In this document: in pieces, positions 18,361 through 38,715 of the stretch
How positions within the stretch are numbered: the first letter of the stretch is position 1
How the letters are laid out: every line of letters begins with the position of its first letter
From: Chroococcidiopsis sp. CCMEE 29
GTDB lineage: Bacteria > Cyanobacteriota > Cyanobacteriia > Cyanobacteriales > Chroococcidiopsidaceae
Direction: 5' to 3'
Length of the DNA: 64,000 nt
Assembly (NCBI RefSeq): GCF_023558375.1
Contig: NZ_CP083761.1
Location: 5,411,001 to 5,475,000, forward strand
Made by a program: the position numbers and the translations under genes
Notes under the pieces: model-generated
What the model was told of the DNA's origin: nothing
The model's database searches: none
Seen by the model: only the letters and a program-made list of their open reading frames with translations

Positions 18361-18361
18361 T

Positions 18362-19577: not shown

Positions 19578-20888
19578 ATGCTGAATACCCCCAATCCAGA
19601 CCAGATCCATCTCGTTCAAGGCGACGAGTTTCTCCCCTCTATCAGCCCATGGACAACAATAGGAGGGATGTTTCTGGTTGGCACTTTTAGCGCAGCAGTT
19701 GCTCTCACAACCGTTCTCAAGTACAGCGTCACAGTCAAAGTACCTGCGACTATTCGTCCTGCCGGAGAATTGCGAATCGTTCAGGCAGCAACTGAGGGAA
19801 TCGTCAAAAGCATTGAAGTGGAAGAGAATCAGGTTCTTACAAAGGGAGATGCGATCGCCTACATTGACGATTCTCAACTCCTGACAAAAAAGAGCCAACT
19901 ACAAGGGAATATCCAGCAGAACCAACTGCAGCTGGCTCAAATTGCTGCTCAGATGGACGCCCTTGAGGCTCAGCGCTTAGCTGAAACCAGCTTGATTAAC
20001 CGCACCATTGCCTCTGCTCAAGCTGACCTCAGTCGCAACCAACGGGTCTATCAAGACCAGCAAATTATAACTCAGGCAGAAGTAAAAGAAGTAGAAGCTG
20101 GCTTGGAGTTAGCAAGGGAGGAGATGAAGCGATATCAGCAGTTAGCTAACACCGGTGCCATTGCTGAGCTGCAAGTCAAGGAGAAAGAACAAGCATTCAT
20201 TGCAGCTCAAGCCAGGCTGGCAAAGTCAAAAGCCACCCTCAATCCCAGTGATGCATCGGTGGCAATAGCGACGGAGCGGATTGCTCAAGAAAGGGCAAGG
20301 GGTGAGGCAACCCTAGCCACATTGAACAAAGAGCGAGAGAACCTGCAAAGCACGCAAATTGAAATTCAAAACCAACTCAACCGCGATGTGAAAGAACTCC
20401 AACAAATCGGGATGGAACTTAGCAAGACATTTATTCTTGCCTCAGAGTCAGGCACAATCCTCAAACTGGAACTGCGAAACGCAGGTCAGGTGGTACAACC
20501 AGGAGAGGCTGTTGCTTACATTGCTCCTCAAAACGCCCCTTTGCTGATCAAGTCCCGTGTAGAGGCTCAAGATATCGACAAGGTGAAACCGGGTCAAAAA
20601 GTCCAGATGCAAGTGTCTGCTTGTCCCTATCCGGACTACGGCACGCTCAAAGGCACTGTCACCACAGTTGCACCAGATGCCCTGCCAGCGGCAAGCAATC
20701 AGGCGGAAGCATCCGCCGCACGTGCCGCCTACGAGGTAACAATTCAGCCCCAAAACCGATTTGTGGGAAGTGAAGCTCACCAGTGTCGTCTGCAATCTGG
20801 GATGGAGGGTACAGCTGATATTATTACGCGCGAGGAGACAGTACTTAAATTCATTCTCCGAAAGGCAAGGTTACTTACGGATCTATGA
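19578..20888 (+). CDS. HlyD-family periplasmic adaptor, cassette A
   Basis: 436 residues. One membrane segment near residues 30-50 (GGMFLVGTFSAAVALTTVL), then the biotinyl/lipoyl-like half (VPATIRPAGELRIVQAATEG), a long coiled-coil hairpin at about 100-270, the second half (LELRNAGQVVQPGEAVAYI) and a beta-barrel (VEAQDIDKVKPGQKVQMQVS). This is the layout of type I secretion adaptors that link an inner-membrane ABC exporter to the outer membrane. It lies directly before the PCAT gene. By eye it is about three-quarters identical to the cassette B copy at 32373-33683. Confidence 0.92.
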   Translation: MLNTPNPDQIHLVQGDEFLPSISPWTTIGGMFLVGTFSAAVALTTVLKYSVTVKVPATIRPAGELRIVQAATEGIVKSIEVEENQVLTKGDAIAYIDDSQLLTKKSQLQGNIQQNQLQLAQIAAQMDALEAQRLAETSLINRTIASAQADLSRNQRVYQDQQIITQAEVKEVEAGLELAREEMKRYQQLANTGAIAELQVKEKEQAFIAAQARLAKSKATLNPSDASVAIATERIAQERARGEATLATLNKERENLQSTQIEIQNQLNRDVKELQQIGMELSKTFILASESGTILKLELRNAGQVVQPGEAVAYIAPQNAPLLIKSRVEAQDIDKVKPGQKVQMQVSACPYPDYGTLKGTVTTVAPDALPAASNQAEASAARAAYEVTIQPQNRFVGSEAHQCRLQSGMEGTADIITREETVLKFILRKARLLTDL

Positions 20889-20890
20889 GA

Positions 20891-20928
20891 GGGGTGAGGG
20901 GCGAGGGGCGAGGGGCGAGGGGCGAGGG
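20891..20928. repeat. GGGGCGA heptamer repeats (four units) between hlyD and PCAT genes
   Basis: One GGGGTGA followed by four GGGGCGA units and a final GGG, starting two bases after the HlyD stop codon. The cassette B equivalent has only two units, so this is a variable-number repeat inside an operon spacer. Confidence 0.8.
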
Positions 20929-20980
20929 AATTATGCTGCGGTAGTTTAATTAAAAAATTGGCGATTACGAGTGATAAACG

Positions 20981-23143
20981 ATGGCTAATCTGCTCAAAAA
21001 AGGTTATCAATGTGTCTTACAGGCGAGTGAGGAAGACTGTGGGGCAGCTTGTCTAGCTGCAATTTCCAGGCACTATGGTCGAACCTTGAGCATCACTCGC
21101 AGTCGGGAAGCAGTAGGGACTGGACAGCTAGGAACAACACTGCTAGGTCTCAAACGTGGCTCTGAGGTTCTGGGGTTCAATGCCCGGTCAGTTAAAGCCT
21201 CAAAGGAAGTAGTAGACAGAATCAAAGAATTACCCCTGCCAGCAGTCATTCATTGGAAAGGCTACCATTGGGTGGTTTTATACGGAAAGCGGGGCAGGAA
21301 GTACATCATTGCCGATCCAGCTGCGGGCATCCGTTATCTCAACAGACAGGAGTTAACGGCAGCTTGGAATGGAATCATGCTCTTGCTGCAGCCAAATCCA
21401 GAGCAGTTTTTTGAACAACCCCAAGAAGATACTGGGGGGGGCTTGGGACGCTTTTTAAGGCGTGTCTGGCCTTATCGGGCGCTGCTGGCTCAAGCTTTAC
21501 TAATCAATATTGTCTTAGGCCTGCTCTCTCTAGCTAGCCCTTTGCTGATCCAAATTCTGACAGATGATGTACTGGTGCGGGGAGACGTTCAGTTACTCAC
21601 GGTTGTGGTGAGTGCCGTTGTTGTGATGACCTTGTTTAGCAGTACCCTGCAACTGTTGCAAACTACAATGATTGCTCATTTTGCTCAACGGTTGCAGTTA
21701 GGGTTAGTCCTGGAATTTGGGCAAAAACTTCTCCACCTGCCCTTAAATTACTTTGAATCTCGTCGCAGCGGTGAAATCGTCAGCCGACTGCGAGATATCA
21801 ATGAAATCAACCAGTTGGTTTCCCAGGTTGTTGTTCGTCTACCCAGTCAGTTTTTTGTTGCAGTGGTTTCTTTTAGCTTCATGGTGTTCTATAGCTGGAA
21901 GCTAACACTCGCGGTAATGCTGGTCGCGATGATCATGACCGTATCAACCCTGCCATTTTTGCCGATTCTACAGCAAAAGACTCGCAGCCTTTTAGTCTTG
22001 GGAGCGGAAAATCAAGGGGTGCTGGTTGAAACTTTCAAAGGCGCACTGGTGATGAAAACAACGACTGCTGCGCCCCAATTCTGGGACGAATTCCAGAGCC
22101 GGTTTGGTCGCCTCGCTAATCTCACCTTTAGCACAATCCAAATCGGCATTATGAACGGCACTTTCACACACCTTATTTCCAGCATCGGCGGCATCACTTT
22201 ACTCGGGTTGGGTAGCCTACTGGTCATAAACAAAGAACTAACCATCGGTCAAGTGCTAGCGTTTAACGGCATGCAGGGTAATGTTCTGGGCTTATTTGGC
22301 TCGCTGATTGGCTTAACAGACGAATATTTTCGCTCTCAAACAGCAATCAATCGTCTCGTAGAAGTGATCGATGCTACACCGGAAGCGGTCGGAGATGCCC
22401 AAAAGCCGTTTGCTCAAATCCCTGGAGGTGCTGACATTTGTTGCACCGAACTCAACTTCCACCATGCTGGCAGAGTTGACTTACTAGAGAATTTTTCCGT
22501 CAATCTGCCTGGAGGGAGAGTCATCGCTCTAATTGGCCAGTCCGGTTGTGGTAAAAGCACGCTAGCTAAGCTGATCGCTGGCTTATATCAGCCGCAGTCT
22601 GGGAATATCCGCATTGGTCTTTATAACTTGCAAGACCTCTCCCTCGATTGCTTGCGACAGCAAGTAGTGCTTGTCCCCCAAGAACCTCACTTTTGGAGTC
22701 GCTCGATTCTGGAGAACTTCCGCTTAGGCAATCCCTACATCTCGTTTGAGCAGATCGTTAAAGCTTGCCAGATTGCCGATGCGGATAGCTTTATCAGTCA
22801 ACTGCCGAATAAATATCAAACTGTGCTAGGGGAATTTGGGGCAAACCTTTCTGGTGGACAACGGCAACGACTAGCGATCGCCAGGGGAATCGTTAACGAT
22901 CCACCAGTACTGATCTTGGATGAAGCGACCGCTGGACTCGATCCAGTCAGTGAATGCCAAGTGCTAGAGCGGCTGTTGGCATCCCGCCAAGGCAAAACCA
23001 CAATTCTGATCACTCACCGTCCTAGCGTGATGAAACGAGCCGATTGGATCGTGCTACTGGATAAAGGTAAGTTGAAAACCCAAGGCACTCTATCTGCTTT
23101 GTCTTCTGTCCCCGGAGACCATTTAAAGTTTTTATCAGCTTGA
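20981..23143 (+). CDS. C39-peptidase ABC exporter (PCAT), cassette A
   Basis: 720 residues. The N-terminal C39 peptidase has catalytic Cys20 (ASEEDCGAACLAAISRH), His96 (WKGYHWVVLYG) and Asp112 (YIIADPA). It is followed by about six membrane segments (roughly 165-450) and a nucleotide-binding domain with Walker A GQSGCGKST (about 519-527), signature LSGGQRQRLAIARG and Walker B PVLILDEAT. Such exporters cut leaders after Gly-Gly and pump the peptide out. All catalytic residues are intact. Likely substrates are peptides A1-A5 on both sides. The cassette B paralogue is also 720 residues and very similar. Confidence 0.96.
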   Translation: MANLLKKGYQCVLQASEEDCGAACLAAISRHYGRTLSITRSREAVGTGQLGTTLLGLKRGSEVLGFNARSVKASKEVVDRIKELPLPAVIHWKGYHWVVLYGKRGRKYIIADPAAGIRYLNRQELTAAWNGIMLLLQPNPEQFFEQPQEDTGGGLGRFLRRVWPYRALLAQALLINIVLGLLSLASPLLIQILTDDVLVRGDVQLLTVVVSAVVVMTLFSSTLQLLQTTMIAHFAQRLQLGLVLEFGQKLLHLPLNYFESRRSGEIVSRLRDINEINQLVSQVVVRLPSQFFVAVVSFSFMVFYSWKLTLAVMLVAMIMTVSTLPFLPILQQKTRSLLVLGAENQGVLVETFKGALVMKTTTAAPQFWDEFQSRFGRLANLTFSTIQIGIMNGTFTHLISSIGGITLLGLGSLLVINKELTIGQVLAFNGMQGNVLGLFGSLIGLTDEYFRSQTAINRLVEVIDATPEAVGDAQKPFAQIPGGADICCTELNFHHAGRVDLLENFSVNLPGGRVIALIGQSGCGKSTLAKLIAGLYQPQSGNIRIGLYNLQDLSLDCLRQQVVLVPQEPHFWSRSILENFRLGNPYISFEQIVKACQIADADSFISQLPNKYQTVLGEFGANLSGGQRQRLAIARGIVNDPPVLILDEATAGLDPVSECQVLERLLASRQGKTTILITHRPSVMKRADWIVLLDKGKLKTQGTLSALSSVPGDHLKFLSA

Positions 23144-23155
23144 AGAGGTATTACG

Positions 23156-23476
23156 ATGTCTGACCCTATTGAGTCAAAAAATCCCGAATTTCTAGTAGAG
23201 TTATCCGAGCCGGAACAGGAGTCTGTAGCTGGCGGATTTGCACTGGAGGATATGTTTGAATCTTTTTTCTTCCAACAAACAGACATCGACACTTTTGCAG
23301 AAGCTAAATTCAATGATTCACAAACTGGTCGTTCTGGCTTACAAAGAACTGGATATAGGTTGTCGCAAATCACTCTAGCGTTTACCTCACCCCGGTTCGG
23401 TGGAGGTCGATCTCGATATCGTCGCTCTCGGCGGATGGGTGGGATTTTCAACCTTCTCCGAGGCTGGGGAATTTAG
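23156..23476 (+). CDS. Double-glycine precursor peptide A5 with Arg-rich tail
   Basis: 106 residues, starting 13 bp after the PCAT stop codon behind GAAGAGG. The leader ends ELSEPEQESVAGG. The body begins FALEDMFESFFFQQTDIDTF, has RTGYRLSQITLAF, and ends in a strongly cationic segment with FGGGRSRYRRSRRMGG and IFNLLRGWGI. The cassette B equivalent (35936-36250) keeps the FFFQQTDI, SPRFGGGR and RRMGGIFN motifs, so these are probably functional. The cationic, amphipathic end suggests membrane activity, but this is inference. No Cys. Confidence 0.78.
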   Translation: MSDPIESKNPEFLVELSEPEQESVAGGFALEDMFESFFFQQTDIDTFAEAKFNDSQTGRSGLQRTGYRLSQITLAFTSPRFGGGRSRYRRSRRMGGIFNLLRGWGI

Positions 23477-23609
23477 GTTACGTATTTTGCGTAACTGGTC
23501 GTTGTTGGGAGTTTCTAACTTTCTTAGTGTCTACTTTAAGTGTGGCGATCGCTACAGAAACTGCCGCCTTTAGACAATGTTAATGATACGTGAGGACTAG
23601 GTAAGTTAT

Positions 23610-24362
23610 ATGAACCACCAATGCCAAACCCTTGATTTTTTTAGGTTATCTACAGCTCCGAATGAAATAGCTAGCTTCCTGCGAAAGAACATGCAATTAA
23701 AGGAAGTATGTCAGAAGATTTTGTATCAAAAAATAATTGAGCAAGCTGCTCAGGAAATGGGTTTAACAGTCACTCCAGAAGAAATTCAGGCTGAGGCGGA
23801 GCGGCGGCGGAAAAAGCATCTAGAGCAGGCTGCTGATACATTTGCTTGGCTAGCTAACCAGATGAGCTCTATAGAAGATTGGGAGGCGGGAATTCGCGAT
23901 CGCCTGCTAGCTCAAAAAGTATCTCAGTCTTTATTTGGTAAAGAGGTAGAAAAATTTTTTACTCAAAATCAAGCTGATTTTGACCAAGTAATACTTTATC
24001 AAATAGTTGTTCCCTACGAAAAGCTAGCTCAGCAACTCTTCTATCAAATTTTGGAAGAAGAAATTAGTTTTTATGAAGTAGCGCATCTTTATGACATTGA
24101 TGATAGCCGCCGCTACCATTGCGGTTATGAAGGAAAGCTTTACCGCTGGAATTTAAAGCCAGAGATCGCAGCCGTTGTATTTGGTGCTGGAGTCGGAGAA
24201 TTAGTTGGTCCGATTACCACCGACCAAGGAGTTCATCTTTTAACAGTTGAAGAGTTTATTCCAGCAGAACTGACTTCTACTAGGTATCAAGACATCTTAA
24301 ATCGGATGTTTATGCAGTGGCTAGAATGTGAACTTAATTATTTGCTTCTTACGAAGTGCTAA
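23610..24362 (+). CDS. PpiC-like (parvulin/SurA-type) protein, cassette A
   Basis: 250 residues. The N-terminal half is helical (FLRKNMQLKEVCQKILYQKI, then EEIQAEAERRRKKH), as in SurA/PrsA chaperone domains. The C-terminal half reads like a degenerate PpiC rotamase domain: FYEVAHLYDIDDSRRYHCGY, PEIAAVVFGAGVGELVGPI and DQGVHLLTVEEF. No signal peptide, so it is likely cytosolic. It may keep precursor peptides unfolded or isomerise prolines, but this is inferred from position. Its duplicate in cassette B (36622-37401) is very similar. The spacer before it ends with the conserved GTTAATGAT...GACTAGGTAAGTTATATGAA. Confidence 0.75.
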   Translation: MNHQCQTLDFFRLSTAPNEIASFLRKNMQLKEVCQKILYQKIIEQAAQEMGLTVTPEEIQAEAERRRKKHLEQAADTFAWLANQMSSIEDWEAGIRDRLLAQKVSQSLFGKEVEKFFTQNQADFDQVILYQIVVPYEKLAQQLFYQILEEEISFYEVAHLYDIDDSRRYHCGYEGKLYRWNLKPEIAAVVFGAGVGELVGPITTDQGVHLLTVEEFIPAELTSTRYQDILNRMFMQWLECELNYLLLTKC

Positions 24363-24942: not shown

Positions 24943-27900
24943 ATGAATCCGAGCTTAGGAGTTCATAGTCAGAATTTGTCTGAAAGCACAGACAACAGTT
25001 CCCCCTACTTTGAGGTTATTCTTAACTTTTTAAAGTTGATTTTAAAAGATAGTAGCGTAGCCTTAAAGTTTAGTAAAGATTTTGAAATTAGTGATTTTCA
25101 ACTGGGTGATGCGCTTGCAGCCTATAATAATACCCCTGTTTTAGTAAATTCTGTCCACTATGAACAAAGCCAAGGAAATTTTTACATCGTTTGCCAAGGC
25201 CGGGTACGATTGCTTGGCTTTGATCATAAACAACAGCGAGAAGTTTCAACTCTGGTGCTGGAGGCTGGTGAAACATTTGGCACAGAGAATTTATTCGGCA
25301 ATGAACCGCTCCTAACCCGTGCGATCGCCTCTAGTGCCGTTCAAGTAGCACAGATGCCAATTACCAAACTTGAAACTTGGTTGGAGCAGCTGCCAAGTCT
25401 GCGAGAATTTTTGCATCAACAGGCAATGCAGCGACAATGTCTAACTTTCTTCAAAACTTCTACAGAACTGCGATCGCTTCCTAGTTATCAACTGCAACAA
25501 CTATTACCTTATTTTGTAGAAACACAGGTAAAGAGCGGACAGTCGCTAGTAGAGATGGCTTCTCTTAATAATGGTCGCTTTTGGCTGCGTCATGGACAGA
25601 TTCAAAGCCAATTGGGCAATTCACCTCCCACAGTAGGACAAAGTTGGGGATATCCTCAGCCAATTCCGAGCGATTGGATTGCTCGAACTGATTCGCTGGT
25701 TTACCACCTACCGAGAGAACATTGGGAAACAGCCCAAGCGATGTTGCTCCCAGGGGTGTCAGCAGGATCTTCAGCCAACTTGGGCAATAGATACAAACCA
25801 AAATCGGCAACTTTTAAAAAACACTCTCCAGTAGTTGAGCAGCGGGAAAATGACCGGAGTCAAACTCAGTCTGAACCACAGCCTAATATCGATCGAGCTG
25901 AGTCAAAACCAATTGCTTTTCCGCAACCAGCGAGCCGCTGTCGGCGAGGATTTTGGCATTCCCTCCCATTTATTGAGCAGCAAAGTTCTTCCGATTGTGG
26001 TGTAGCGTGTCTAGCAATGATCGGCCAGTACTGGGGAAAACGCTTTAGCCTTAACACCCTGCGGCATTTAGCTGGGGTAGATCGTGCCGGTACTTCACTC
26101 CGAGGTTTAGCCAAAGCTGCCGAAACTTTAGGATTTCACGCTCGACCAGTGCGGGCAAGTTTTAGCCGGTTGGAGTCGCAGACTAACCCCTGGATCGCTC
26201 ACTGGGAAGGAAATCATTATGTAGTTGTCTACCGAGTTAAAGGGGACAAAATTCTGATTGCCGATCCAGCGTTGAACAAGCGATCGCTTTCTCGCCACCA
26301 GTTTCTCGATAGCTGGACTGGATACGCGCTGCTACTAGACCCCACTGAGCGCTTGCAAGCAGCTCAAAGCGAGAAAATTTCCTTAAGTCAATTTTGGGGT
26401 GCTGCTTTACCTTACCATTCCCTAATCGGGCAAATAATCTCGATGTCCTTGCTGCTCCAGCTTTTCGGTCTGAGTACCCCTCTGTTTACCCAGATTATTC
26501 TCGACCATGTAGTGGTGCAGAAAAGCTTTGTCACTCTGAATGCTTTTGTCCTGGGACTGCTGTTGTTTGGCATTTGGCGTATTGGCTTGATTGCTGCGCG
26601 TCAATACCTACTAGATTACTTTTCCAACCGCTTTGACCTGACTTTAATCAGTGGCTTTATCAACCACACTCTCTTGCTGCCGTTAAAGTTTTTTGAATCG
26701 CGCCGTGTGGGGGATATTATTACCCGCGTTCAGGAAAACCGGAAGGTACAGGTGTTTATTACTAGACAGGCAATCTTAGCCTGGTTAGATGCGTTGATGG
26801 CAGTCGTCTATATCGGTCTAATGTTCTACTACAGCTGGCATCTTACCCTACTGGTACTAGCTCTAATTCCGCCGATTGCGATCTTGACCTTGGTGGCAAC
26901 TCCTTGGCTACGGCGGGTATCGAGAGAGATTTTTAATGAAGTAGTGGCGCAAAACTCCTTGCTGGTGGAAATGCTGACCGGTGTAGCTACAGTCAAAGCG
27001 GCTGCTGCTGAACGAGATGTTCGCTGGCGTTGGGAAGACCGCTTTACCAGTGCTCTCAACGCCGAATTTCGCGGTCAGAAACTGGCGAATGGCTTGCAAG
27101 CCACTGGTGGTTTAATCAATACCTTGGGTAGTACAGCTTTGCTATGGTATGGTGCGACGCTGGTAATTCAAGACCAGTTGAGCATCGGTCAGTTTGTGGC
27201 TTTCACCATGATGTTTGGCAGTGTAATTAACCCCATCCTATCAGTGGTGAATCTTTGGGATGAGCTGCAAGAAGTGCTGATCTCAGTGGAACGGCTAAAC
27301 GATGTCTTTAGCTCGCCACTAGAAGCAAGTCCTGGACAACAGATGCTGGTTTTGCCCCAACTAAGGGGGGAGGTACGATTTGAAAATGTTACTTTTCGCT
27401 ACAGTCCCGAGCAGGGGCGGAACACGTTGCAAAACATTACTTTCGAGGTAGGAGTAGGACAAACGATTGGTATTGTCGGTCGCAGTGGTTCTGGCAAGAG
27501 TACCCTGGTGAATCTGCTACAGGGACTGTATCATCCGGACGGAGGTCGCATCCTAGTTGATGGGCATGATATTCGGCATATTTCTCTCCAGTCTCTGCGG
27601 AGTCAAATGGGTGTAGTGCCACAAGAGTGTTTCTTGTTTTCCGCCACGATTCTGGAAAACATCACGCTCTATCGGTCTGATTTCGCTTTAGAGCAAGTAA
27701 TTGAGGTTGCCAAACTTGCAGAAGCTCATGCTTTTATTCAAGCTTTACCTTTGGGATACAACACCCAAGTAGGGGAAAGGGGGATGACGCTTTCTAGTGG
27801 GCAACGGCAGCGGATTGCGATCGCTCGCGCTTTGTTAGGAGCACCCCGCGTTTTAGTGCTAGATGAGGCAACTAGTGCCCTCGATGCTGAGTCAGAACGG

Positions 27901-28098
27901 CACTTGCTACAAAATCTGAGCCACCTCGCCCGCGATCGCACGACTTTCATCATTGCTCATCGGCTGTCAACCGTGCGACATGCCGACTGTATCCTAGTGT
28001 TAGATCGGGGCATTTTGGTTGAGCGCGGCACTCACGAACAACTAATGAATCATGGAAAAGGTCTTTACTACCATCTAGCACAGCAGCTCGATCTTTGA
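24943..28098 (+). CDS. hetC: HetC-like C39-peptidase ABC exporter with cNMP-binding-like N-terminus
   Basis: 1051 residues, close to the ~1040 of Nostoc HetC as I recall it. Order: cyclic-nucleotide-binding-like region (about 60-170: NFYIVCQGRVRLLGF, LEAGETFGTENLFG), a second degenerate copy near 190-260, a linker, then a C39 peptidase with Cys352 (SSSDCGVACLAMIG), His425 (GNHYVVVY) and Asp441 (ILIADP). Then membrane segments (about 480-780) and an ATPase with Walker A GRSGSGKST (846-854), LSSGQRQRIAIARAL and VLVLDEATSALD. HetC is needed for heterocyst differentiation in Nostoc and is thought to export a peptide. The neighbouring hetP-like gene supports the name. Confidence 0.85.
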   Translation: MNPSLGVHSQNLSESTDNSSPYFEVILNFLKLILKDSSVALKFSKDFEISDFQLGDALAAYNNTPVLVNSVHYEQSQGNFYIVCQGRVRLLGFDHKQQREVSTLVLEAGETFGTENLFGNEPLLTRAIASSAVQVAQMPITKLETWLEQLPSLREFLHQQAMQRQCLTFFKTSTELRSLPSYQLQQLLPYFVETQVKSGQSLVEMASLNNGRFWLRHGQIQSQLGNSPPTVGQSWGYPQPIPSDWIARTDSLVYHLPREHWETAQAMLLPGVSAGSSANLGNRYKPKSATFKKHSPVVEQRENDRSQTQSEPQPNIDRAESKPIAFPQPASRCRRGFWHSLPFIEQQSSSDCGVACLAMIGQYWGKRFSLNTLRHLAGVDRAGTSLRGLAKAAETLGFHARPVRASFSRLESQTNPWIAHWEGNHYVVVYRVKGDKILIADPALNKRSLSRHQFLDSWTGYALLLDPTERLQAAQSEKISLSQFWGAALPYHSLIGQIISMSLLLQLFGLSTPLFTQIILDHVVVQKSFVTLNAFVLGLLLFGIWRIGLIAARQYLLDYFSNRFDLTLISGFINHTLLLPLKFFESRRVGDIITRVQENRKVQVFITRQAILAWLDALMAVVYIGLMFYYSWHLTLLVLALIPPIAILTLVATPWLRRVSREIFNEVVAQNSLLVEMLTGVATVKAAAAERDVRWRWEDRFTSALNAEFRGQKLANGLQATGGLINTLGSTALLWYGATLVIQDQLSIGQFVAFTMMFGSVINPILSVVNLWDELQEVLISVERLNDVFSSPLEASPGQQMLVLPQLRGEVRFENVTFRYSPEQGRNTLQNITFEVGVGQTIGIVGRSGSGKSTLVNLLQGLYHPDGGRILVDGHDIRHISLQSLRSQMGVVPQECFLFSATILENITLYRSDFALEQVIEVAKLAEAHAFIQALPLGYNTQVGERGMTLSSGQRQRIAIARALLGAPRVLVLDEATSALDAESERHLLQNLSHLARDRTTFIIAHRLSTVRHADCILVLDRGILVERGTHEQLMNHGKGLYYHLAQQLDL

Positions 28099-31133: not shown

Positions 31134-31388
31134 ATGTCTCACGAATTATTTATTGAGCTATCTGAAGAGCAACAAGAGCTGGTTGCTGGTGGTGGACAAC
31201 TGATCGAACTAGATCAAATTGCTAAAACCTACTTAAGCCTCGATCAAAAGAAATCTAGTACAGCAGTCGTGAAAAATGTGAACTCTGGTTTGGGTGCCAG
31301 CACAGTAGGCTTCGCTGTCATCAACCAGTACGAAGAGGCTAAATTTAAGACTGGTGCTCTTGAAGATGTCTACTTGAAATTTGACTAA
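31134..31388 (+). CDS. Double-glycine precursor peptide B1 (CTB bacteriocin-like)
   Basis: 84 residues behind AAGGAG. The leader is MSHELFIELSEEQQELVAGG, almost the same as in A1/A2. The body (GQLIELDQIAKTYLSLDQKK and onward) is different from A1 in sequence but similar in length and in the late EEAKF.../EDVYLKFD pattern. No Cys. It is a tandem twin of B2 (offset 401 bp), so B1/B2 and A1/A2 were duplicated independently. Confidence 0.82.
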   Translation: MSHELFIELSEEQQELVAGGGQLIELDQIAKTYLSLDQKKSSTAVVKNVNSGLGASTVGFAVINQYEEAKFKTGALEDVYLKFD

Positions 31389-31434
31389 TTCTAGTTTGAA
31401 TAATGTCGGAAATTCCTCATCATATTTGATGAGA

Positions 31435-31468
31435 TTGAGTAATTTGATTTACAGAGCAAATTACTCAA
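31435..31468 (+). other. Perfect 12-bp hairpin between peptide genes B1 and B2
   Basis: TTGAGTAATTTG and CAAATTACTCAA enclose a 10-nt loop. A weaker relative (TGAGTAATTAG ... AAATTACC) is present after B2 at about 31840-31871. Just 3' the sequence TAGTAGTTTTCA matches part of the ~100-nt element seen after B2, which here looks truncated. Confidence 0.65.
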
Positions 31469-31534
31469 AAGTAGATTTGCAATCTTCCTTAGTAGTTTTC
31501 AAACAACAAAGTGAATTCCAAGGAGAACATTACA

Positions 31535-31789
31535 ATGTCACACGAATTATTCGTTGAGCTATCTGAAGAGCAACAAGAGCTAGTTGCTGGTGGTGGACAA
31601 CTGATCGAACTAGATCAAATTGCTAAAACCTACTTAAGCCTCGATCAAAAGAAATCTAATACAGCAGTCATAAAGAATGTCAAGTCTGATTTGAGTGGTA
31701 GCTCAGTAAGCTTCGGTGTCATTAACCAGTACGAAGAGGCTAAATTTAAGACTGGTGCTCTTGAAGATGTCTACTTAAAATTTGACTAA
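31535..31789 (+). CDS. Double-glycine precursor peptide B2 (CTB bacteriocin-like)
   Basis: 84 residues from the ATG at 31535, preceded by AAGGAGAAC; the frame can be extended to 31511 but only across the ribosome-binding site. The leader is MSHELFVELSEEQQELVAGG. It differs from B1 at some ten positions, clustered in the middle (KNVKSDLSGSSVSFGVINQY). Probably exported by the cassette B PCAT. Confidence 0.82.
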   Translation: MSHELFVELSEEQQELVAGGGQLIELDQIAKTYLSLDQKKSNTAVIKNVKSDLSGSSVSFGVINQYEEAKFKTGALEDVYLKFD

Positions 31790-31877
31790 TTCTAGCTTGA
31801 ACGATGCTCAGAATTCCTCAATAATAGGCTTCACTGAGGTTGAGTAATTAGTTTCACACAACAAATTACCAAAGTTA

Positions 31878-31975
31878 GATTCCAGAGCTTATCTAGTAGT
31901 TTTCATTTTGCATGACTTGATTTTCTGGCTCAATGCCTAATTGAAAACAGTGTGAAGGAGTAAGTCTCTGGAATC
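31878..31975 (+). other. Conserved ~100-nt structured intergenic element, copy 3
   Basis: The outer stem is GATTCCAGAG/CTCTGGAATC: compared with copies 1 and 2 (AATTCCAGAG/CTCTGGAATT) both partners of the terminal pair have changed. The inner hairpin is kept: GTTTTCATTTTGCATGA on the left, loop TGATTTTCTG, GCTCAATGCCTAATTGAAAAC on the right. A C-A mismatch in copy 1 is a C-G pair here. It lies 88 bp after the B2 stop. Confidence 0.65.
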
Positions 31976-32051
31976 TTCCATAATTGATTCTCCTCAAGGA
32001 GTTTCCGAAAGCCAACAAATTTGTTTAGCTGACTATTAGTGAGGTAGCAAG

Positions 32052-32294
32052 ATGTCATTTCCAGAAATCCCATCCTCAGAGTTATTTCTAGAAGAGTTGC
32101 TTGAAGAACAACAGGAGTTCGTAGCGGGCGGCGCTATTGTTTACAAAGAAGAATACCACTACGAAGAGAAAACCGAGCATTCATCAGAAGAAAAAACCGG
32201 AGACCAAGACAAGAAAGAAAATTCTCCCTCAACTAGTCCCTTGTGGTCGTTAAATTTATGGCCCAAAGTTGCGCCTCTGAGGATTAGGTTTTAG
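32052..32294 (+). CDS. Double-glycine precursor peptide B4
   Basis: 80 residues. Homologue of A4: leader MSFPEIPSSELFLEELLEEQ then QEFVAGG, followed by a Glu/Tyr/Lys-rich body (YKEEYHYEEKTEHSSEEKTG) and a basic, proline-containing C-terminus (LWPKVAPLRIRF). The GTGAGGTA motif 8-15 bases before the start is the same as in A4. It lies 78 bp before the HlyD gene, closer than in cassette A. Confidence 0.75.
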   Translation: MSFPEIPSSELFLEELLEEQQEFVAGGAIVYKEEYHYEEKTEHSSEEKTGDQDKKENSPSTSPLWSLNLWPKVAPLRIRF

Positions 32295-32372
32295 GTTTCT
32301 CTCTGCTATTGCCTGACGAGGCTGTTGCGCTGGATGTGGAAGAGCAGTGCTGTAGTGTAAGGGTTCGTAGCC

Positions 32373-33683
32373 ATGGTAAATGAAATCAATCCCGAATCGC
32401 TTCCTCAAGTTCAAAGCGATGAATTTCTCCCCTCTATCAGTCCCTGGACAACATTAGGGGGGGGAATTCTAGTTGTGAGCTTTAGCGCAGCAGTTGCTCT
32501 AGCTTCCGTCCTCAACTACAACGTTACAGTCAAAGTACCTGCAACTATCCGTCCGGCGGGAGAATTGCGAATTGCACAGGCAGCAACTGAGGGAATCGTT
32601 AAAAGCATTGAAGTAAAAGAAAATCAGGTTGTCAGCAAGGGTGAAGCGATCGCTTTTATTGACGATTCCCAACTCCAGACTAAAAAGCTGCAACTGCAAG
32701 GGAATATTCAGCAGAACCAATTACAACAGGCTCAAATCGCGGCTCAGCTCAATTCCCTGGATGCTCAGATAGACGCTGAAACCAGGTTAACGGAGCGCGC
32801 CGTTGCCGCTGCTGAAGCTGAACTGCGTCTTCAACAACAAGACCATCAAGAAAAGCAACTGGTAGCTCAAGCAGAAGTACAGGCAGCGGTAGCCTCCCTA
32901 GATTTAGCGCAGGAGGAGATGAAGCGATATCAGCAGTTGGCAAATACCGGAGCAATTGCTCAATTGCAAGTCAAGACGAAAGAACAAGCTTTCAAAGTAG
33001 CCCAAGCGAAACTCAAACAGGCACAAGCTAGTCTCAATCCGAGTGATGCAACAGTGGCAATAGCGACTGAGCGAATTGCCCAAGAAAAAGCCAGAGGGTT
33101 GGCAACTTTAGCCACGTTGAAAAAAGAGCGAGAAAACCTGCAAAGCACGCAAATTGAAGCCCAAAACGCTCTGAGCCGCGATACGAAAGACCTGCAACAA
33201 ATTGGGATTGAACTGAGCAAGACTTTTATTCTTGCCCCAACGGATGGCACGATCCTTAAACTGGAGCTGCGAAACACTGGTCAGGTGGTGGGAGTGGGAG
33301 GAGCGATCGCTCAAATTGCCCCCAGTAATGCTCCTCTGTTAGTCAAAGCGCGAGTGGCGGCTCAAGATATTGATCGGGTGAAACCAGGACAACAAGTGCA
33401 GATGCAGGTTTCTGCTTGTCCCTATCCAGAGTACGGCACGCTCAAAGGCACTGTGACAACAGTGTCAGCAGATGCTCTACCAATGGCAAGCGATGGGGCA
33501 GCTATGTCCGCATCACCAGCGGCTTATGAGGTGACAATTCAACCCCAAACCCGATTTGTCGGAGACGGCGATCGCCAATGTCAGTTACAAGCCGGAATGG
33601 AGGGTAGAGCTGATATTATTTCGCGCTCTGAAACGGTACTGCAATTCATTCTTCGTAAGGCGAGGTTGCTGACGGATCTGTAA
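32373..33683 (+). CDS. HlyD-family periplasmic adaptor, cassette B
   Basis: 436 residues, same length and domain order as the cassette A copy: membrane segment (about 30-50), lipoyl-like half beginning VPATIRPAGELRIAQAATEG, coiled coil about 95-270 and barrel region with VAAQDIDRVKPGQQVQMQVS. The central coiled coil is the most diverged part, which in these adaptors contacts the outer-membrane channel or matches the partner exporter. It is coupled to the PCAT gene across a 72-bp spacer that carries two GGGGCGA units. Confidence 0.92.
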   Translation: MVNEINPESLPQVQSDEFLPSISPWTTLGGGILVVSFSAAVALASVLNYNVTVKVPATIRPAGELRIAQAATEGIVKSIEVKENQVVSKGEAIAFIDDSQLQTKKLQLQGNIQQNQLQQAQIAAQLNSLDAQIDAETRLTERAVAAAEAELRLQQQDHQEKQLVAQAEVQAAVASLDLAQEEMKRYQQLANTGAIAQLQVKTKEQAFKVAQAKLKQAQASLNPSDATVAIATERIAQEKARGLATLATLKKERENLQSTQIEAQNALSRDTKDLQQIGIELSKTFILAPTDGTILKLELRNTGQVVGVGGAIAQIAPSNAPLLVKARVAAQDIDRVKPGQQVQMQVSACPYPEYGTLKGTVTTVSADALPMASDGAAMSASPAAYEVTIQPQTRFVGDGDRQCQLQAGMEGRADIISRSETVLQFILRKARLLTDL

Positions 33684-33685
33684 GA

Positions 33686-33702
33686 GGGGCGAGGGGCGAG
33701 GG
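33686..33702. repeat. GGGGCGA heptamer repeats (two units)
   Basis: Two GGGGCGA units and a final GGG between the hlyD and PCAT genes, at the same place as the longer array at 20891-20928. Confidence 0.75.
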
Positions 33703-33755
33703 AATCCTGTTGCGGTAGTTTAATCAAAATAATTGGCGATTAAGAGTTACAAACG

Positions 33756-35918
33756 ATGGCTAAACTGCTCAAAAAAGGTTATCAATGCGTCCTACAGGCG
33801 AGTGAAGAAGACTGTGGCGCTGCTTGCCTAGCTGCAATTTCCAGGCACCATGGCAAGATTTTGAGCATCAATCGTAGCCGGGAAGCAGTCGGAACCGGAC
33901 AGCTAGGAACAACCCTGCTGGGGTTAAAGCGAGGCGGTGAATCTCTAGGTTTCAATGCCCGACCCGTCAAAGCCTCAGAGGAAGTCATAGACCGAATTAA
34001 AGAAGTACCCCTGCCAGCAGTCATTCATTGGAAAGGCTACCACTGGGTTGTGTTATACGGCAAGCGAGGCAGGAAGTACGTGATTGCCGATCCAGCTTGT
34101 GGCATTCGTTATCTGAGTAAACGGGAGCTGATGGCAGCCTGGAATGGAATCATGCTGTTACTGGTTCCAGATCCAGAGCAATTTTTTCAGCAGAGTCAAG
34201 AAGAATCGATTGGCGGCTTCGGACGCTTTTTGCAGCGGATCTTGCCGTATCGCCTGCTGCTAGCTGAAGCATTGCTGATCAATATCGTCCTAGGATTACT
34301 CTCGCTTGCTAGCCCATTTCTGATCCAAATTCTCACAGATGATGTCCTGGTGCGGGGAGATCTGCAGTTACTCACGGTTGTGGTGGCTGCCGTTGGGGTG
34401 ACGACGATATTTAGTAGTACCCTGCAACTGTTGCAAACGACGATGATTGCTCACTTTGGGCAACGATTGCAGTTGGGACTCGTCTTGGAATTTGGGCGCA
34501 AACTGCTGCATCTACCCTTAAACTACTTTGAATCTCGTCGCAGCGGTGAAATCATCAGCCGACTGCGAGATATCAATGAAATTAACCAATTGGTCTCCCA
34601 AGTAGTTGCCCATCTGCCTAGCCAATTTTTTGTTGCAGTGGTTTCTTTTAGCTTCATGGTTTTCTATAGCTGGAAGCTGACACTCGCAGTCATGCTAATC
34701 GCGGCGATCATGACCGTATCAGCTCTGCCTTTTTTACCCGTTCTGCAACAAAAGACGCGCAATCTGTTAGTCTTATCAGCGGAAAATCAAGGGGTGCTGG
34801 TTGAAACGTTTAAAGGCGCACTCGTGCTGAAAACAACGACTGCTGCGCCTCAGTTCTGGGATGAATTTCAGAGCCGCTTCGGTCGGCTGGCAAATCTCAC
34901 CTTCAGCACGATCAAAATTGGGATTATCAACAGCACGTTCGCGCAACTAATCAGCAGCATTGGCGGCATTGTTTTACTGGGATACGGTAGCATCCTGGTG
35001 ATTAACAAGGAACTGACTATCGGTCAAGTGCTTGCCTTTAATGGTATGCAGGGGAATGTGATTGGCTTATTTGGCTCGTTGATTAGCTTGACTGATGAAT
35101 ATTTTCGCTCCCAAACCGCAGTCAGTCGTCTTCTAGAAGTGATCGATGCTACACCAGAATCGGTCGGAGATGCCCAAAAGCCGTTTGCTCAAATTCCGAG
35201 TGATGCTGATATCTGTTGCAGCCATCTCAACTTTCACCATCCGGGCAGAATTGACTTACTAGAGAATTTTTCGGTCAATCTGCCGGGAGGAAAAGTAATT
35301 GCGTTGATTGGCCAGTCCGGCTGTGGCAAAAGTACCCTAGCTAAGCTAATAGCAGGTTTATATCAGCCGCAGTCGGGGAATATCCGCATTGGTCTTTATA
35401 ACTTACAAGATCTATCCCTCGATTGCCTGCGACAGCAAGTAGTGCTGATTCCCCAAGAACCCCACTTCTGGAGTCGCTCGATTCTGGAGAACTTCCGCTT
35501 AGGCAATCCTCACATCCCATTTGAGAACATTGTCAGAGCTTGCCAGATTGCGGATGCGGATAGCTTTATCAGTCAACTGCCGAATAAGTATCAAACTGTG
35601 CTAGGGGAATTTGGGGCAAATCTTTCTGGCGGACAACGGCAACGACTGGCGATCGCTCGAGCGATTGTTAACGATCCACCGCTACTGATTTTGGATGAAG
35701 CGACCTCTGGACTCGATCCGGTTAGTGAATTTCAAGTGCTAGAGCGGCTGTTGGCATCTCGCCGCGGTAAAACCACTATTATGATCACTCACCGTCCTAG
35801 CGTGATCAATCGTGCTGATTGGGTGGTGCTACTGGATAAAGGCAAGTTGAAAGTCCAGGGTCCTCTATCTGTTTTGCGTTCTAACCCCGGCGACCATTTA
35901 AAGTTTTTTTTACCTTAA
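33756..35918 (+). CDS. C39-peptidase ABC exporter (PCAT), cassette B
   Basis: 720 residues, collinear with the cassette A exporter and clearly a recent paralogue. C39 residues Cys20 (ASEEDCGAACLA), His96 and Asp112 are conserved; Walker A GQSGCGKST, LSGGQRQRLAIARA and LLILDEATSG are intact. Differences are spread across the membrane domain and the peptidase (for example HHGKILSINRS against HYGRTLSITRS). It should cleave and export B1, B2, B4 and B5, and is also the nearest exporter for the graspetide-like precursor at 38389-38715. Confidence 0.96.
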   Translation: MAKLLKKGYQCVLQASEEDCGAACLAAISRHHGKILSINRSREAVGTGQLGTTLLGLKRGGESLGFNARPVKASEEVIDRIKEVPLPAVIHWKGYHWVVLYGKRGRKYVIADPACGIRYLSKRELMAAWNGIMLLLVPDPEQFFQQSQEESIGGFGRFLQRILPYRLLLAEALLINIVLGLLSLASPFLIQILTDDVLVRGDLQLLTVVVAAVGVTTIFSSTLQLLQTTMIAHFGQRLQLGLVLEFGRKLLHLPLNYFESRRSGEIISRLRDINEINQLVSQVVAHLPSQFFVAVVSFSFMVFYSWKLTLAVMLIAAIMTVSALPFLPVLQQKTRNLLVLSAENQGVLVETFKGALVLKTTTAAPQFWDEFQSRFGRLANLTFSTIKIGIINSTFAQLISSIGGIVLLGYGSILVINKELTIGQVLAFNGMQGNVIGLFGSLISLTDEYFRSQTAVSRLLEVIDATPESVGDAQKPFAQIPSDADICCSHLNFHHPGRIDLLENFSVNLPGGKVIALIGQSGCGKSTLAKLIAGLYQPQSGNIRIGLYNLQDLSLDCLRQQVVLIPQEPHFWSRSILENFRLGNPHIPFENIVRACQIADADSFISQLPNKYQTVLGEFGANLSGGQRQRLAIARAIVNDPPLLILDEATSGLDPVSEFQVLERLLASRRGKTTIMITHRPSVINRADWVVLLDKGKLKVQGPLSVLRSNPGDHLKFFLP

Positions 35919-35935
35919 TAGGAGTAGTTACTACT

Positions 35936-36250
35936 ATGTCAGACCCGATTAAACAAGATGCTCAACTCCTGCAGGAGTTGCCTGAATCAGAACAAGAGTC
36001 TGTAGCTGGCGGATTTGCCATGGATATGTTTGACTCTTTTTTCTTCCAGCAAACAGATATCAGCACTTTCGGCGAGGCTGAATATAATAATCCATCAGAT
36101 GGTGGGTCCTATTCACAAAGAACTGGGTATAAGCTTTCCCAACTCACTCTGGCATTTAGCTCGCCCCGGTTCGGTGGAGGTAGAGCTCGATCTGGTCGCT
36201 CTCGGCGGATGGGCGGTATTTTCAACTTCCTCCGAGGCTGGAGAAATTAG
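35936..36250 (+). CDS. Double-glycine precursor peptide B5 with Arg-rich tail
   Basis: 104 residues, starting 17 bp after the PCAT stop behind AGGAG. The leader ends ELPESEQESVAGG. The body FAMDMFDSFFFQQTDISTF, RTGYKLSQLTLAFSSPRF, GGGRARSGRSRRMGG and IFNFLRGWRN is conserved with A5 at both ends and more variable in the middle (EYNNPSDGGSYSQ). The gene order PCAT-peptide-PpiC is the same in both cassettes. Confidence 0.78.
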   Translation: MSDPIKQDAQLLQELPESEQESVAGGFAMDMFDSFFFQQTDISTFGEAEYNNPSDGGSYSQRTGYKLSQLTLAFSSPRFGGGRARSGRSRRMGGIFNFLRGWRN

Positions 36251-36621
36251 GGTGCTACAAAAGCTTTTTGAGGAGGACACCTTTATCTATGCAGCAAACT
36301 CAAACATTTGGGCATTGAGTTTGACTTAACCCTAAAGTATTCTATCCCCCAACTCATGAATTTGTTCAATTCTGATCATATTCATCATCTTGCCACCTCC
36401 AATAGTGCGCTAGGCAGCGTGGAAGAAGAACCCTAGCCTTGGCTTGATAAGTCTTTTGATTAATCGATGGCTACGCAGATCCACAATGTTGTAGAGATAC
36501 TTAACTAGTCGCCCTTGGCAGGTTTCTGGCTTTCTTTGCGTCTGATTTAAGTGCGTCGTTCGCTTCCGGAACGACCGCATTTTAGTCTACGTTAATGATG
36601 CGTGGAGACTAGTTAAGTTAT

Positions 36622-37401
36622 ATGAATCATCAAGGTCAAGCCATTGATTTTTTCGGGTCATCTATCGATCTGACGGAAATAGTTAACTTCCTGCGAAAAA
36701 ACATGCAATTGAAGGAAGTATGCCAGAAGATTTTGTATCAAAAAATAATTGAGCAATCTGCTCAGGAAACCGGCTTAACAGTCACTCCAGAAGAAATCCA
36801 GGCTGAGGTGGAACACCTGCGGCGGACAAAGCACCTGGAGAAGGCTACTGATACATTTGCTTGGCTAGCTGAGCAAATGCTTGATGTAGAAGATTGGGAA
36901 GTAGGCATTCGCGATCGCCTGCTAGAGCAGAAGTTATCTCAGTCTTTATTTGGCAAAGAAGTAGAAAAGTTTTTTACTCAAAATCAGCTTGATTTTGACC
37001 AGGTATTACTTTATCAATTAATTGTTCCCTACGAGAAACTTTGCCAGGAACTTTTCTATCAAATTTCTGAGCAAGAAATTAGCTTTTATGAAGCGGCTCA
37101 CCTTTATGATATCGACGAGAACCGCCGTTATCATTGCGGTTATGAAGGGAAGCTTTACCGCTGGAATTTAAAGCCAGAAATAGCAACAGTGGTGTTTGGT
37201 GCCAGAGCTGGAGAATTAATTGGTCCGCTTCCTACCGACCAAGGAGTTCATCTTTTAATAGTTGAAGAGTTTATTCCAGCAGAACTTAACTCTACGAGGT
37301 ATCAAGACATTTTAGATCGGATGTTTACGCATTGGTTAGAATGCGAACTTAACTATCTACTACATAGCTACCATCATAATGAAAACAACTCGATTAGATG
37401 A
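36622..37401 (+). CDS. PpiC-like (parvulin/SurA-type) protein, cassette B
   Basis: 259 residues, paralogue of 23610-24362. Shared blocks: FLRKNMQLKEVCQKILYQKI, DRLLEQKLSQSLFGKEVEKF, HLYDIDENRRYHCGYEGKLY and FGARAGELIGPLPTDQGVHL. It is about nine residues longer at the C-terminus. No signal peptide. Its stop codon overlaps the start of the ATP-grasp gene (ATGA at 37398-37401), so the two are probably translationally coupled. The 370-bp gap before it contains no gene; a GTCGTTC/GAACGAC hairpin lies near 36553-36575. Confidence 0.75.
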   Translation: MNHQGQAIDFFGSSIDLTEIVNFLRKNMQLKEVCQKILYQKIIEQSAQETGLTVTPEEIQAEVEHLRRTKHLEKATDTFAWLAEQMLDVEDWEVGIRDRLLEQKLSQSLFGKEVEKFFTQNQLDFDQVLLYQLIVPYEKLCQELFYQISEQEISFYEAAHLYDIDENRRYHCGYEGKLYRWNLKPEIATVVFGARAGELIGPLPTDQGVHLLIVEEFIPAELNSTRYQDILDRMFTHWLECELNYLLHSYHHNENNSIR

Positions 37402-38306
37402 ATATTTTAATTTTGGGAAATGCAGAAGATGCTCATGCTGTCCATCTGCATAATGCACTAACTCAAGCAGGTGCGACAGTAGCTTATTTTGATACTCGTT
37501 TATTTCCTACACAGTTAAAAATATCTTGGCAACCGGACACTCAGGTAGGTAGTTTAACCCTATCTGGAGGAAATAAGTTGCACTTTCAAGACATCAACAG
37601 CGTGTTCTGGCGACAGATTTCTGGGGTTTATATTCCAACATTAAAAGATGCAAATCAGCAAAAAGTTGCCTTTCATGATTCCATGAGTCTGTTGCGATCG
37701 CTCATGCAAGCTTGTCCAGCTTACTGGGTTAACTCTTGGCAAGCATACCAGTTTCATAAAGAAAAACCCCTGCAACTAAGCAAGGCAAAGCAACTAGGAG
37801 TCACAATTCCAGCCACCCTGATCAGCAATAATTCCGAGCAAATTATTGAGTTCGCTCAATATCATAAACGTCTGATCTTTAAACCAGTTTATGGTGGCGC
37901 ACATACCCAGTTTGTCACTGAGTCACACTTAGAACCTCAGCGGCTGGCTTTAGCCTTGAATCTTGCTCCAGTAACGATACAGGAGTACATTCCTGGTACT
38001 AATATTCGTAGCTATGTAGTCGGTGAGTCAGTTTATTCTGCCGAAATTCGCAGTAATTCTTTAGATTTCCGGGAAGATGCACAAGCTGAATTGATGCCAA
38101 TAGAATTGCCAGCATCAGTGCGACAGCAATGTCTAGCGATCGCTAAAGCATTCATGCTGGAGTGGACAGCGATTGATTGGCGTTTAAAGCCAACAGGTGA
38201 ATACGTGTTCCTAGAAGCAAATCCAAGTCCGATGTTTCTACACTTTGAGCAGAAAACTGGTTTTCCGATCACCCAAAGGCTAGTCAGTTTACTAATGGTT
38301 GATTAA
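37398..38306 (+). CDS. ATP-grasp ligase, graspetide macrocyclase-like
   Basis: 302 residues. The pattern is that of RimK/MvdC-MvdD-type ATP-grasp enzymes: N-terminal Rossmann-like MNILILGNAEDAHAVHLHNA, substrate-side FWRQISGVYIP, then LIFKPVYGGAHTQFV (ATP-binding Lys), TIQEYIPGTNIRSYVVG, and the Mg-binding end FMLEWTAIDWRLKPTGEYVF followed by LEANPSPMF. Such enzymes join Thr/Ser/Lys side chains to Asp/Glu carboxylates in precursor peptides. The convergent precursor at 38389-38715, with Thr-rich GEEGG repeats, is the obvious substrate. Overlaps the PpiC-like gene by 4 bases. There is only one ligase, so ester bonds rather than both ester and amide are expected. Confidence 0.8.
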   Translation: MNILILGNAEDAHAVHLHNALTQAGATVAYFDTRLFPTQLKISWQPDTQVGSLTLSGGNKLHFQDINSVFWRQISGVYIPTLKDANQQKVAFHDSMSLLRSLMQACPAYWVNSWQAYQFHKEKPLQLSKAKQLGVTIPATLISNNSEQIIEFAQYHKRLIFKPVYGGAHTQFVTESHLEPQRLALALNLAPVTIQEYIPGTNIRSYVVGESVYSAEIRSNSLDFREDAQAELMPIELPASVRQQCLAIAKAFMLEWTAIDWRLKPTGEYVFLEANPSPMFLHFEQKTGFPITQRLVSLLMVD

Positions 38307-38388: not shown

Positions 38389-38715
38389 TTAGATACTTAA
38401 ATCTAAGTACATACCACCTTCTTCACCTACAGCCATAGTTGTAACTTCACCGCCTTCCTCACCTACCGCCAAAGTAGTATAAGTTGGAGATTCTTTAGAA
38501 GGTGATTCTTTACGACCAGGGAATTTAATCCGGGGAAATTCAAAACTTGGATACCCAGTGGAACCTCCTGCTTCACTTCCTGGACATGGAGCAGAGATAC
38601 ACTGGATATGGCCTCCACCTGCAACTATTTCTGCGTCTGCCTCATTAAGTTCTTCGGCGAAACTCAATTCAATGTTTTCTAGAGCAGAAATATCTAAATC
38701 AAAAGGATGGCTCAT
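38389..38715 (-). CDS. Graspetide-like precursor peptide with double-glycine leader
   Basis: 108 residues behind AGGAGA. The N-terminal part has a Gly-Gly leader (ELNEADAEIVAGGG). It continues with a Cys pair (CISAPC), a Gly/Ser stretch and SFEFPRIKFPGRKES, which may be the ligase-recognition segment. The C-terminus carries two near-identical core repeats, TTLAVGEEGGEV and TTMAVGEEGGMY, ending LDLSI. Repeated Thr-Thr plus Glu-Glu cores are typical of omega-ester peptides made by ATP-grasp ligases. Unusually, the Gly-Gly site lies some 40 residues before the first core. It faces the ATP-grasp gene and has a TGCCAN3TGGCA palindrome about 100 bp upstream. Confidence 0.72.
   Translation of the reverse strand: MSHPFDLDISALENIELSFAEELNEADAEIVAGGGHIQCISAPCPGSEAGGSTGYPSFEFPRIKFPGRKESPSKESPTYTTLAVGEEGGEVTTMAVGEEGGMYLDLSI

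What the first reader, a model, noticed from the sequence alone, without database searches (positions are those of the whole stretch)
38389..38715. Graspetide-like precursor that carries both a double-glycine site and GEEGG cores
The protein has a Gly-Gly leader end (EIVAGGG, residues about 30-36), a middle segment with CISAPC and PRIKFPGRKES, and two C-terminal cores TTLAVGEEGG and TTMAVGEEGG. Known omega-ester peptide precursors usually have a ligase-recognition motif close to the core and no C39 site far upstream. Here PCAT cleavage would release a ~70-residue product containing the recognition segment and both cross-linked rings.
Basis: partly seen in the sequence, partly recalled or inferred. 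Interest (0 to 1): 0.7.

Follow-up and report, generated by a model that had tools for sequence, protein, structure and literature searches.

The report
Cyanobacterial plesiocin-type graspetide precursor, PCAT-exported
This small gene encodes a secreted peptide that an adjacent enzyme is predicted to staple into two tiny double-ringed hairpins, probably a protease inhibitor; it is a new member of a peptide class already known, but its wider family re-uses the same N-terminal enzyme tag with several different export signals, including on whole secreted proteins.

Summary
A 108-aa ORF on the MINUS strand (38715 to 38389) has a Gly-Gly leader end and two TTxAVGEEGG cores, the only two such sites in the 6.39-Mb genome. 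It lies tail-to-tail with the genome's only hit to the graspetide-ligase model TIGR04187 (37398-38306), which follows a C39/ABC exporter (PCAT) and a PpiC-like gene.

Relatives settle the pairing. Close ligases occur across cyanobacteria, with more distant ones in gammaproteobacteria and planctomycetes. All 46 ORFs found with two or more TTxxxxEE cores lie within 3 kb of the ligase. Core positions 1 and 8 are lost together while 2 and 7 are kept, as expected for nested plesiocin-type rings: two esters per core, four here (-72 Da predicted).

The predicted PCAT product is 73-74 residues with both cores. But GG leaders are ordinary in graspetides (about half of precursors), and the constant element is an N-terminal HPF motif (45 of 46), so the likely ligase tag leaves with the leader. 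PRIKFPGRKES is not conserved.

Verdict: new member of a known kind. More interesting: HPF and cores stay fixed while the export signal changes (GG leader, Tat-like signal, or a secreted C-terminal domain).

The parts
38389..38715 (-). Graspetide precursor gene, 108 aa (P0001)
   Evidence: ORF and motifs; homologues beside ligases in many genomes
38695..38709 (-). HPFDL motif, residues 3-7: probable ligase-recognition tag
   Evidence: HPF in 45 of 46 precursors chosen by cores alone; Leu7 94%. Binding to the ligase is inferred
38611..38619 (-). GGG, residues 33-35: C39 cleavage site
   Evidence: Gly 98% and 90% conserved; ELNEADAEIVAGGG matches co-encoded GG peptides at 8-9 of 14 positions. Cleavage inferred
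38572..38601 (-). CISAPCPGSE, residues 39-48: conserved segment of unknown role inside the predicted product
   Evidence: In 16 distinct precursors with mostly silent codon changes
38503..38535 (-).
   Evidence: Not conserved in the alignment of 52 precursors
38449..38478 (-). Core 1 TTLAVGEEGG, residues 80-89
   Evidence: Whole-genome pattern search; covariation of positions 1 and 8 across cores
38413..38442 (-). Core 2 TTMAVGEEGG, residues 92-101
   Evidence: As for core 1
37398..38306 (+). ATP-grasp graspetide ligase, 302 aa
   Evidence: TIGR04187 8.4e-44, MvdD model 9.2e-40; PsnB first in profile search of the PDB; model superposes on MdnC and PsnB; DFR motif invariant; only TIGR04187 hit in the genome
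36622..37401 (+). SurA/PpiC-like protein (TIGR04500-related), overlaps ligase start by 4 nt; role in export cassette or as ligase partner
   Evidence: TIGR04500 2.3e-17, PF00639 2e-7; parvulin domain in the model; paralogue at 23610-24362 without ligase
33756..35918 (+). PCAT: C39 peptidase plus ABC transporter; probable leader peptidase and exporter
   Evidence: PF03412 1.6e-32, PF00664, PF00005
32373..33683 (+). HlyD-type adaptor of the export cassette
   Evidence: TIGR01843 4.3e-45
35936..36250 (+). Small GG peptide of the cassette (CTB-like), not the ligase substrate
   Evidence: NF038167 5.5e-6; no TTxxxxEE; similar peptide at 23156-23476 in the ligase-free cassette

Best explanation
The gene encodes the substrate of the neighbouring ATP-grasp ligase, in a plesiocin-type (TTxxxxEE) graspetide pathway attached to a cyanobacterial bacteriocin export cassette. 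Inferred mechanism: the ligase binds the N-terminal HPFDL leader region, phosphorylates Glu side chains with ATP and closes two nested Thr-Glu esters in each core (inner T2-E7, outer T1-E8), four in all. The C39 domain of the PCAT then cuts after the GG, and the PCAT with HlyD exports a 73-74-residue peptide bearing two bicyclic hairpins. The product most likely inhibits serine proteases, with residue 3 of each core (Leu, Met) as the candidate specificity residue. Shown by sequence: gene content, ligase family, pairing, core pattern, GG leader and HPF conservation. Inferred: cross-linking, leader binding, cleavage and inhibition.
For: Ligase beside the precursor in 19 of 20 order-level loci and all 46 multi-core ORFs within 3 kb of a ligase. 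Only two core sites in the genome, both here, and one TIGR04187 hit. Positions 1 and 8 of cores co-lost, 2 and 7 kept. Ligase profile hits PsnB first, model superposes on MdnC and PsnB, DFR invariant. HPF in 45 of 46. PCAT, HlyD in the cluster; GG leader like that of co-encoded peptides.
Against: No experiment. The precursor is on the opposite strand from the ligase and not in its operon (the same arrangement recurs in L053 and L084). Most ligase loci have no PCAT close by, so PCAT cleavage is best supported here and in the cassette-bearing loci. Some relatives lack a GG. Protease inhibition rests on analogy with characterised graspetides; rosaritide showed no growth inhibition (PMC13097080).
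Confidence: 0.85

Rival explanations
1. One reading: the ligase recognises the middle segment (CISAPC to PRIKFPGRKES), which stays in the product, and the N-terminal part serves only C39.
For: CISAPCPGSE is strongly conserved in 16 precursors and lies after the GG.
Against: Most precursors lack CISAPC, and PRIKFPGRKES is not conserved. HPF is present in nearly all, including types with no GG at all, so it cannot be only a C39 element.
Confidence: 0.07
2. The PpiC-like protein is an obligate partner of this ligase, as MirC is for MirB in rosaritide synthesis.
For: TIGR04500 similarity, 4-nt overlap with the ligase gene, adjacent in about 15 of 80 loci; MirC is essential in vivo (PMC13097080).
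Against: Present near only 9 of 46 well-flanked ligases; relatives elsewhere in 19 of 20 genomes; a paralogue sits in a ligase-free cassette in this window; the protein lacks the N-terminal third of the TIGR04500 profile.
Confidence: 0.3
3. The ligase modifies another peptide of the cluster (such as 35936-36250 or the CTB-type peptides) and the 38389 ORF is unrelated to it.
For: Other GG peptides lie on the ligase's strand, nearer the PCAT.
Against: They lack TTxxxxEE, and a similar peptide occurs in the sister cassette with no ligase. The ligase's relatives track TTxxxxEE precursors.
Confidence: 0.03

Closest known systems
Plesiocin (prototype of group 2 graspetides; PsnA2/PsnB)
   Same: Repeated TTxxxxEE-type cores, one ATP-grasp ligase for all linkages, ring-within-ring hairpins with two esters per repeat (PMC12291112, PMC13097080, PMC8939145; the exact consensus is from my own knowledge). 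PsnB is the best profile hit in the PDB. Group 2 often co-occurs with NHLM-type transporters (PMC13097080).
   Different: Ligase only about 27% identical to PsnB over the superposition; HPF leader family of its own; two cores instead of four; CISAPC segment; placement in the published group 2 network not tested.
Rosaritide (group 21; MirA-MirB-MirC-MirD)
   Same: Same gene kinds: precursor with PCAT site, TIGR04187-type ligase, TIGR04500-type PpiC relative, PCAT (PMC13097080).
   Different: Core pattern differs (three interlocking Ser/Thr-Asp esters in MirA); the PpiC-like protein here lacks the N-terminal domain and keeps a recognisable parvulin domain; it is not tied to the ligase in most relatives.
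Class II microviridins (AMdnA)
   Same: Several cores on one precursor, GG sites, C39 transporter, cyanobacterial (PMC13039773, PMC7823629).
   Different: Core TxKxPSD with two ligases and a lactam; here TTxxxxEE, one ligase, no Lys in the core.
Cyanobacterial bacteriocin export clusters (groups I and II of PMC3140520)
   Same: C39/ABC transporter, HlyD, SurA-type rotamase protein and several GG precursors; a long-type C39 transporter at 24943-28098.
   Different: Here one of two adjacent copies of the cassette has an ATP-grasp ligase and a graspetide precursor attached.

Membership tests
Graspetides | ATP-grasp ligase of the graspetide-synthetase family in the locus | tested here: met
   TIGR04187/TIGR04184 (below their curated cut-offs), PF21068 above cut-off, superposition on MdnC and PsnB better than on RimK
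Graspetides | Precursor with donor (Ser/Thr/Lys) and acceptor (Asp/Glu) residues in conserved cores, linked to the ligase | tested here: met
Graspetides | Side-chain ester or amide cross-links in the product | not testable with these tools
   Needs mass spectrometry
Group 2 (plesiocin-type) | TTxxxxEE cores with nested T1-E8 and T2-E7 esters | tested here: inconclusive
   Pattern met; co-loss of positions 1 and 8 fits nested rings; bonds not observed; consensus recalled from memory
Group 2 (plesiocin-type) | Ligase in the group 2 cluster of the published similarity network | not tested
   Network not held. PsnB is the best PDB profile hit
Group 21 (rosaritide-type) | Core with three interlocking Ser/Thr-Asp linkages | tested here: not met
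   Cores are TTxxxxEE
Group 21 (rosaritide-type) | Co-occurring TIGR04500 PpiC-like partner | tested here: inconclusive
   Present but below cut-off, partial, and not tied to the ligase in relatives
Double-glycine (C39/PCAT) substrates | GG-terminated leader with hydrophobic anchor residues, PCAT in the cluster | tested here: met
Double-glycine (C39/PCAT) substrates | Cleavage after GG by the C39 domain | not testable with these tools
   Needs a protease assay

The most novel reading that the evidence does not exclude
The family is a portable modification module: a constant N-terminal HPF tag recruits the ligase to TTxAxGEEGG cores placed in any secreted polypeptide, and the export signal has been exchanged repeatedly. 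The forms seen are a GG leader for PCAT (this window and most cyanobacteria), a twin-arginine-like signal in planctomycetes, and no GG but a C-terminal domain that looks like that of type I-secreted RTX proteins in Okeania and two further genera, where about 8-12 cores sit on 400-490-aa proteins. These would be natural graspetide-decorated proteins rather than leader-cleaved peptides.
Probability: 0.5. Interest if true: 0.7.

Novelty: new member of a known kind. Interest (0 to 1): 0.45.

Why it matters
It gives a cyanobacterial graspetide with a clean one-ligase, one-precursor, two-core set-up that can be tested in E. coli. The family shows from sequence alone which core residues probably pair and which leader residues probably bind the ligase. 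If the export-swap reading holds, one ligase type serves several secretion routes and decorates whole secreted proteins, which would widen the view of graspetides as small leader-cleaved peptides and suggest a short tag for engineering.

Tried and rejected
Pfam, NCBIfam and PDB searches with the precursor gave only chance hits. The family-level search found no homologue, so the order was used. Papers were searched for the exact core and leader strings without a relevant hit, and for graspetide plus twin-arginine with none. The HPF count from the 52-sequence alignment is circular because HPF was a selection criterion; it was replaced by a count on precursors chosen by cores alone. Idea weakened: PpiC as a graspetide-specific partner, since copies occur in a ligase-free cassette and elsewhere in most genomes. 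Idea dropped: the 35936 peptide as the ligase substrate. Pfam found nothing significant in the long or Tat-like precursors, so the RTX-like and Tat-like readings rest on sequence appearance. A wider planctomycete search was not possible with the handle rules. The papers that define the graspetide groups (Ramesh 2021, Choi and Link 2023) are not held, so group 2 membership stays open.

Full report
WHAT IS THERE. The ORF is on the minus strand, 38715 to 38389, 108 aa. It has every motif named, shifted by about a residue. It faces the ATP-grasp gene (37398-38306, plus strand) tail to tail. Upstream of the ligase on the plus strand lie HlyD (32373-33683), a PCAT (33756-35918; C39, ABC membrane and ATPase domains), a small GG peptide (35936-36250) and a SurA/PpiC-like gene (36622-37401) whose end overlaps the ligase start by four bases. 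The core pattern occurs twice in 6.39 Mb, both in this gene, and TIGR04187 has one hit in the genome. Shuffles of the protein never give two TTxxxxEE. The two cores differ by four silent codons and one residue.

THE PAIRING. A search of 391 genomes of the order found matches in 41. Twenty neighbourhoods were read: 19 have a full ligase 62-76% identical to this one, or in one case its start at a contig end, beside the precursor. A scan of named genomes with the ligase alignment gave 80 loci, mostly cyanobacteria, with Pleionea, Alteromonadaceae and planctomycetes at 46-51%. ORFs with at least two TTxxxxEE in those loci are all within 3 kb of the ligase, 46 of 46. The precursor usually lies upstream on the same strand (51 of 57); the opposite-strand arrangement of the window recurs in L053 and L084, which also have the PpiC gene next to the ligase.

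THE LIGASE. It matches TIGR04187 and the MvdD/MvdC models well but below all curated cut-offs. With the single sequence MdnC is the first PDB hit; with the alignment profile PsnB, the plesiocin synthetase, is first (1.4e-40) and MdnC second. The AlphaFold model (pLDDT 91) superposes on MdnC (TM 0.87) and PsnB (about 0.84), better than on RimK (0.68-0.76). The DFR motif noted as critical for graspetide synthetases (PMC13097080) is invariant in 18 sequences.

THE CORES. In 81 distinct precursors, cores anchored on T/S2, A4, E7 and G9 show joint loss of the hydroxyl at position 1 and the acid at position 8 (269/3/11/18, Fisher 1e-18; unique cores 52/3/7/14, 8e-8). Examples are YTKAWFEGGG and YTKALHENGG. 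With positions 1 and 8 intact, positions 2 and 7 are lost in at most one case. That is what nested rings T1-E8 and T2-E7 predict, with the inner ring obligatory. Plesiocin has two esters per repeat (PMC12291112) in ring-within-ring connectivity (PMC13097080); the precise TTxxxxEE pairing of plesiocin is from my own knowledge of Lee et al. Shared ancestry of cores inflates the p-values. Position 3 varies most while A4 and G6 are nearly fixed, so it is the candidate protease-contact residue (inference).

THE LEADER. Among precursors chosen by cores alone, 45 of 46 carry HPF and the other has SPF. In the alignment Leu7, Leu12, Leu17 and Leu23 are 80-94% conserved, the first Gly 98% and the second 90%; the middle segment of the window protein is not conserved (HPF itself was a selection criterion in that alignment). 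PF-containing leader motifs are recognition elements elsewhere: PFFARFL in microviridins (PMC8939145) and RPFG in fuscimiditide (PMC13003496). So the ligase tag is most likely in residues 3 to about 20, and it leaves with the leader. The C39 site resembles those of the GG peptides of the same cassette, 8-9 of 14 residues.

GG motifs are found in about half of graspetide precursors (PMC8939145), in class II and III microviridins (PMC13039773), and as a predicted PCAT site in MirA (PMC13097080). A GG leader plus cores is not unusual.

THE PpiC-LIKE GENE. It resembles MirC, the essential partner in rosaritide synthesis (TIGR04500, PMC13097080), but covers only profile positions 97-327 and has a recognisable parvulin domain. 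It is near only 9 of 46 well-flanked ligases. Relatives occur in 19 of 20 genomes, often several. The window carries a second, 80% identical copy at 23610-24362 in a sister cassette without a ligase. Rotamase SurA proteins are standard in cyanobacterial bacteriocin clusters of groups I, II and VI (PMC3140520). It is therefore more likely part of the export cassette than a graspetide-specific partner, though the 4-nt overlap leaves an obligate role possible.

BEYOND THE WINDOW. Ligase relatives show different carriers for the same tag and cores. Planctomycete precursors (4 of 4) have HPF, then an RR-containing hydrophobic signal-like stretch, then cores. Okeania precursors of 405-488 aa have HPF, no GG, 8-12 cores and a shared C-terminal domain beginning FNEEIYRQSYP; similar proteins occur in two more genera (G163/L008, G071/L050). 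Some short precursors (Calothrix, Scytonematopsis, Iningainema) have no GG. On the ligase tree the Tat-like and long types are each one clade, and the GG label needs six changes against 17 in shuffles (quick tree, many weak branches). The secretion routes are read from sequence and were not tested; Pfam gave no significant domain.

WHAT STAYS OPEN. CISAPCPGSE is in 16 precursors with only silent changes but for one residue. It lies inside the predicted product and might be a disulfide loop, an extra cross-link site or a contact surface. Assignment to group 2 cannot be finished without the published network.

Noticed in passing
L090:7987-9252, L092, L094, L096, L099, L103 (Okeania); also L008, L050: Long proteins (405-488 aa) next to the ligase with HPF start, no GG, about 8-12 TTxAxGEEGG cores and a shared C-terminal domain resembling type I-secreted proteins.
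   Followed up: partly
L126:7788-8339, L128:423-1382, L129:9515-9973, L130:8820-9848 (planctomycetes): Precursors with HPF followed by a twin-arginine-like signal and several cores; L128 also has a stretch weakly like peptidase inhibitor I9 (E 0.03).
   Followed up: partly
window 38572-38601 (minus strand) and 15 other precursors: CISAPCPGSE segment conserved with mostly silent codon changes; role unknown.
   Followed up: partly
window 17370-24362 and 31134-37401: Two adjacent copies of one export cassette (GG peptides, HlyD, PCAT, small peptide, PpiC-like); only the second carries the ligase and graspetide precursor.
   Followed up: partly
window 24943-28098: Long-type C39/ABC transporter (1051 aa) with an extended N-terminus, between the two cassettes.
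   Followed up: no
L066, L068, L069, L070 (Rhizonema, Brasilonema): Precursors with wider cores such as TTNYVTATVGEAAEEGG, suggesting larger rings made by the same ligase family.
   Followed up: no
L100, L104, L107, L108, L114 (Acaryochloris, Alkalinema): Precursors with an extra conserved segment TLTAVGP(N/G/H)ESGESG soon after the GG leader.
   Followed up: no
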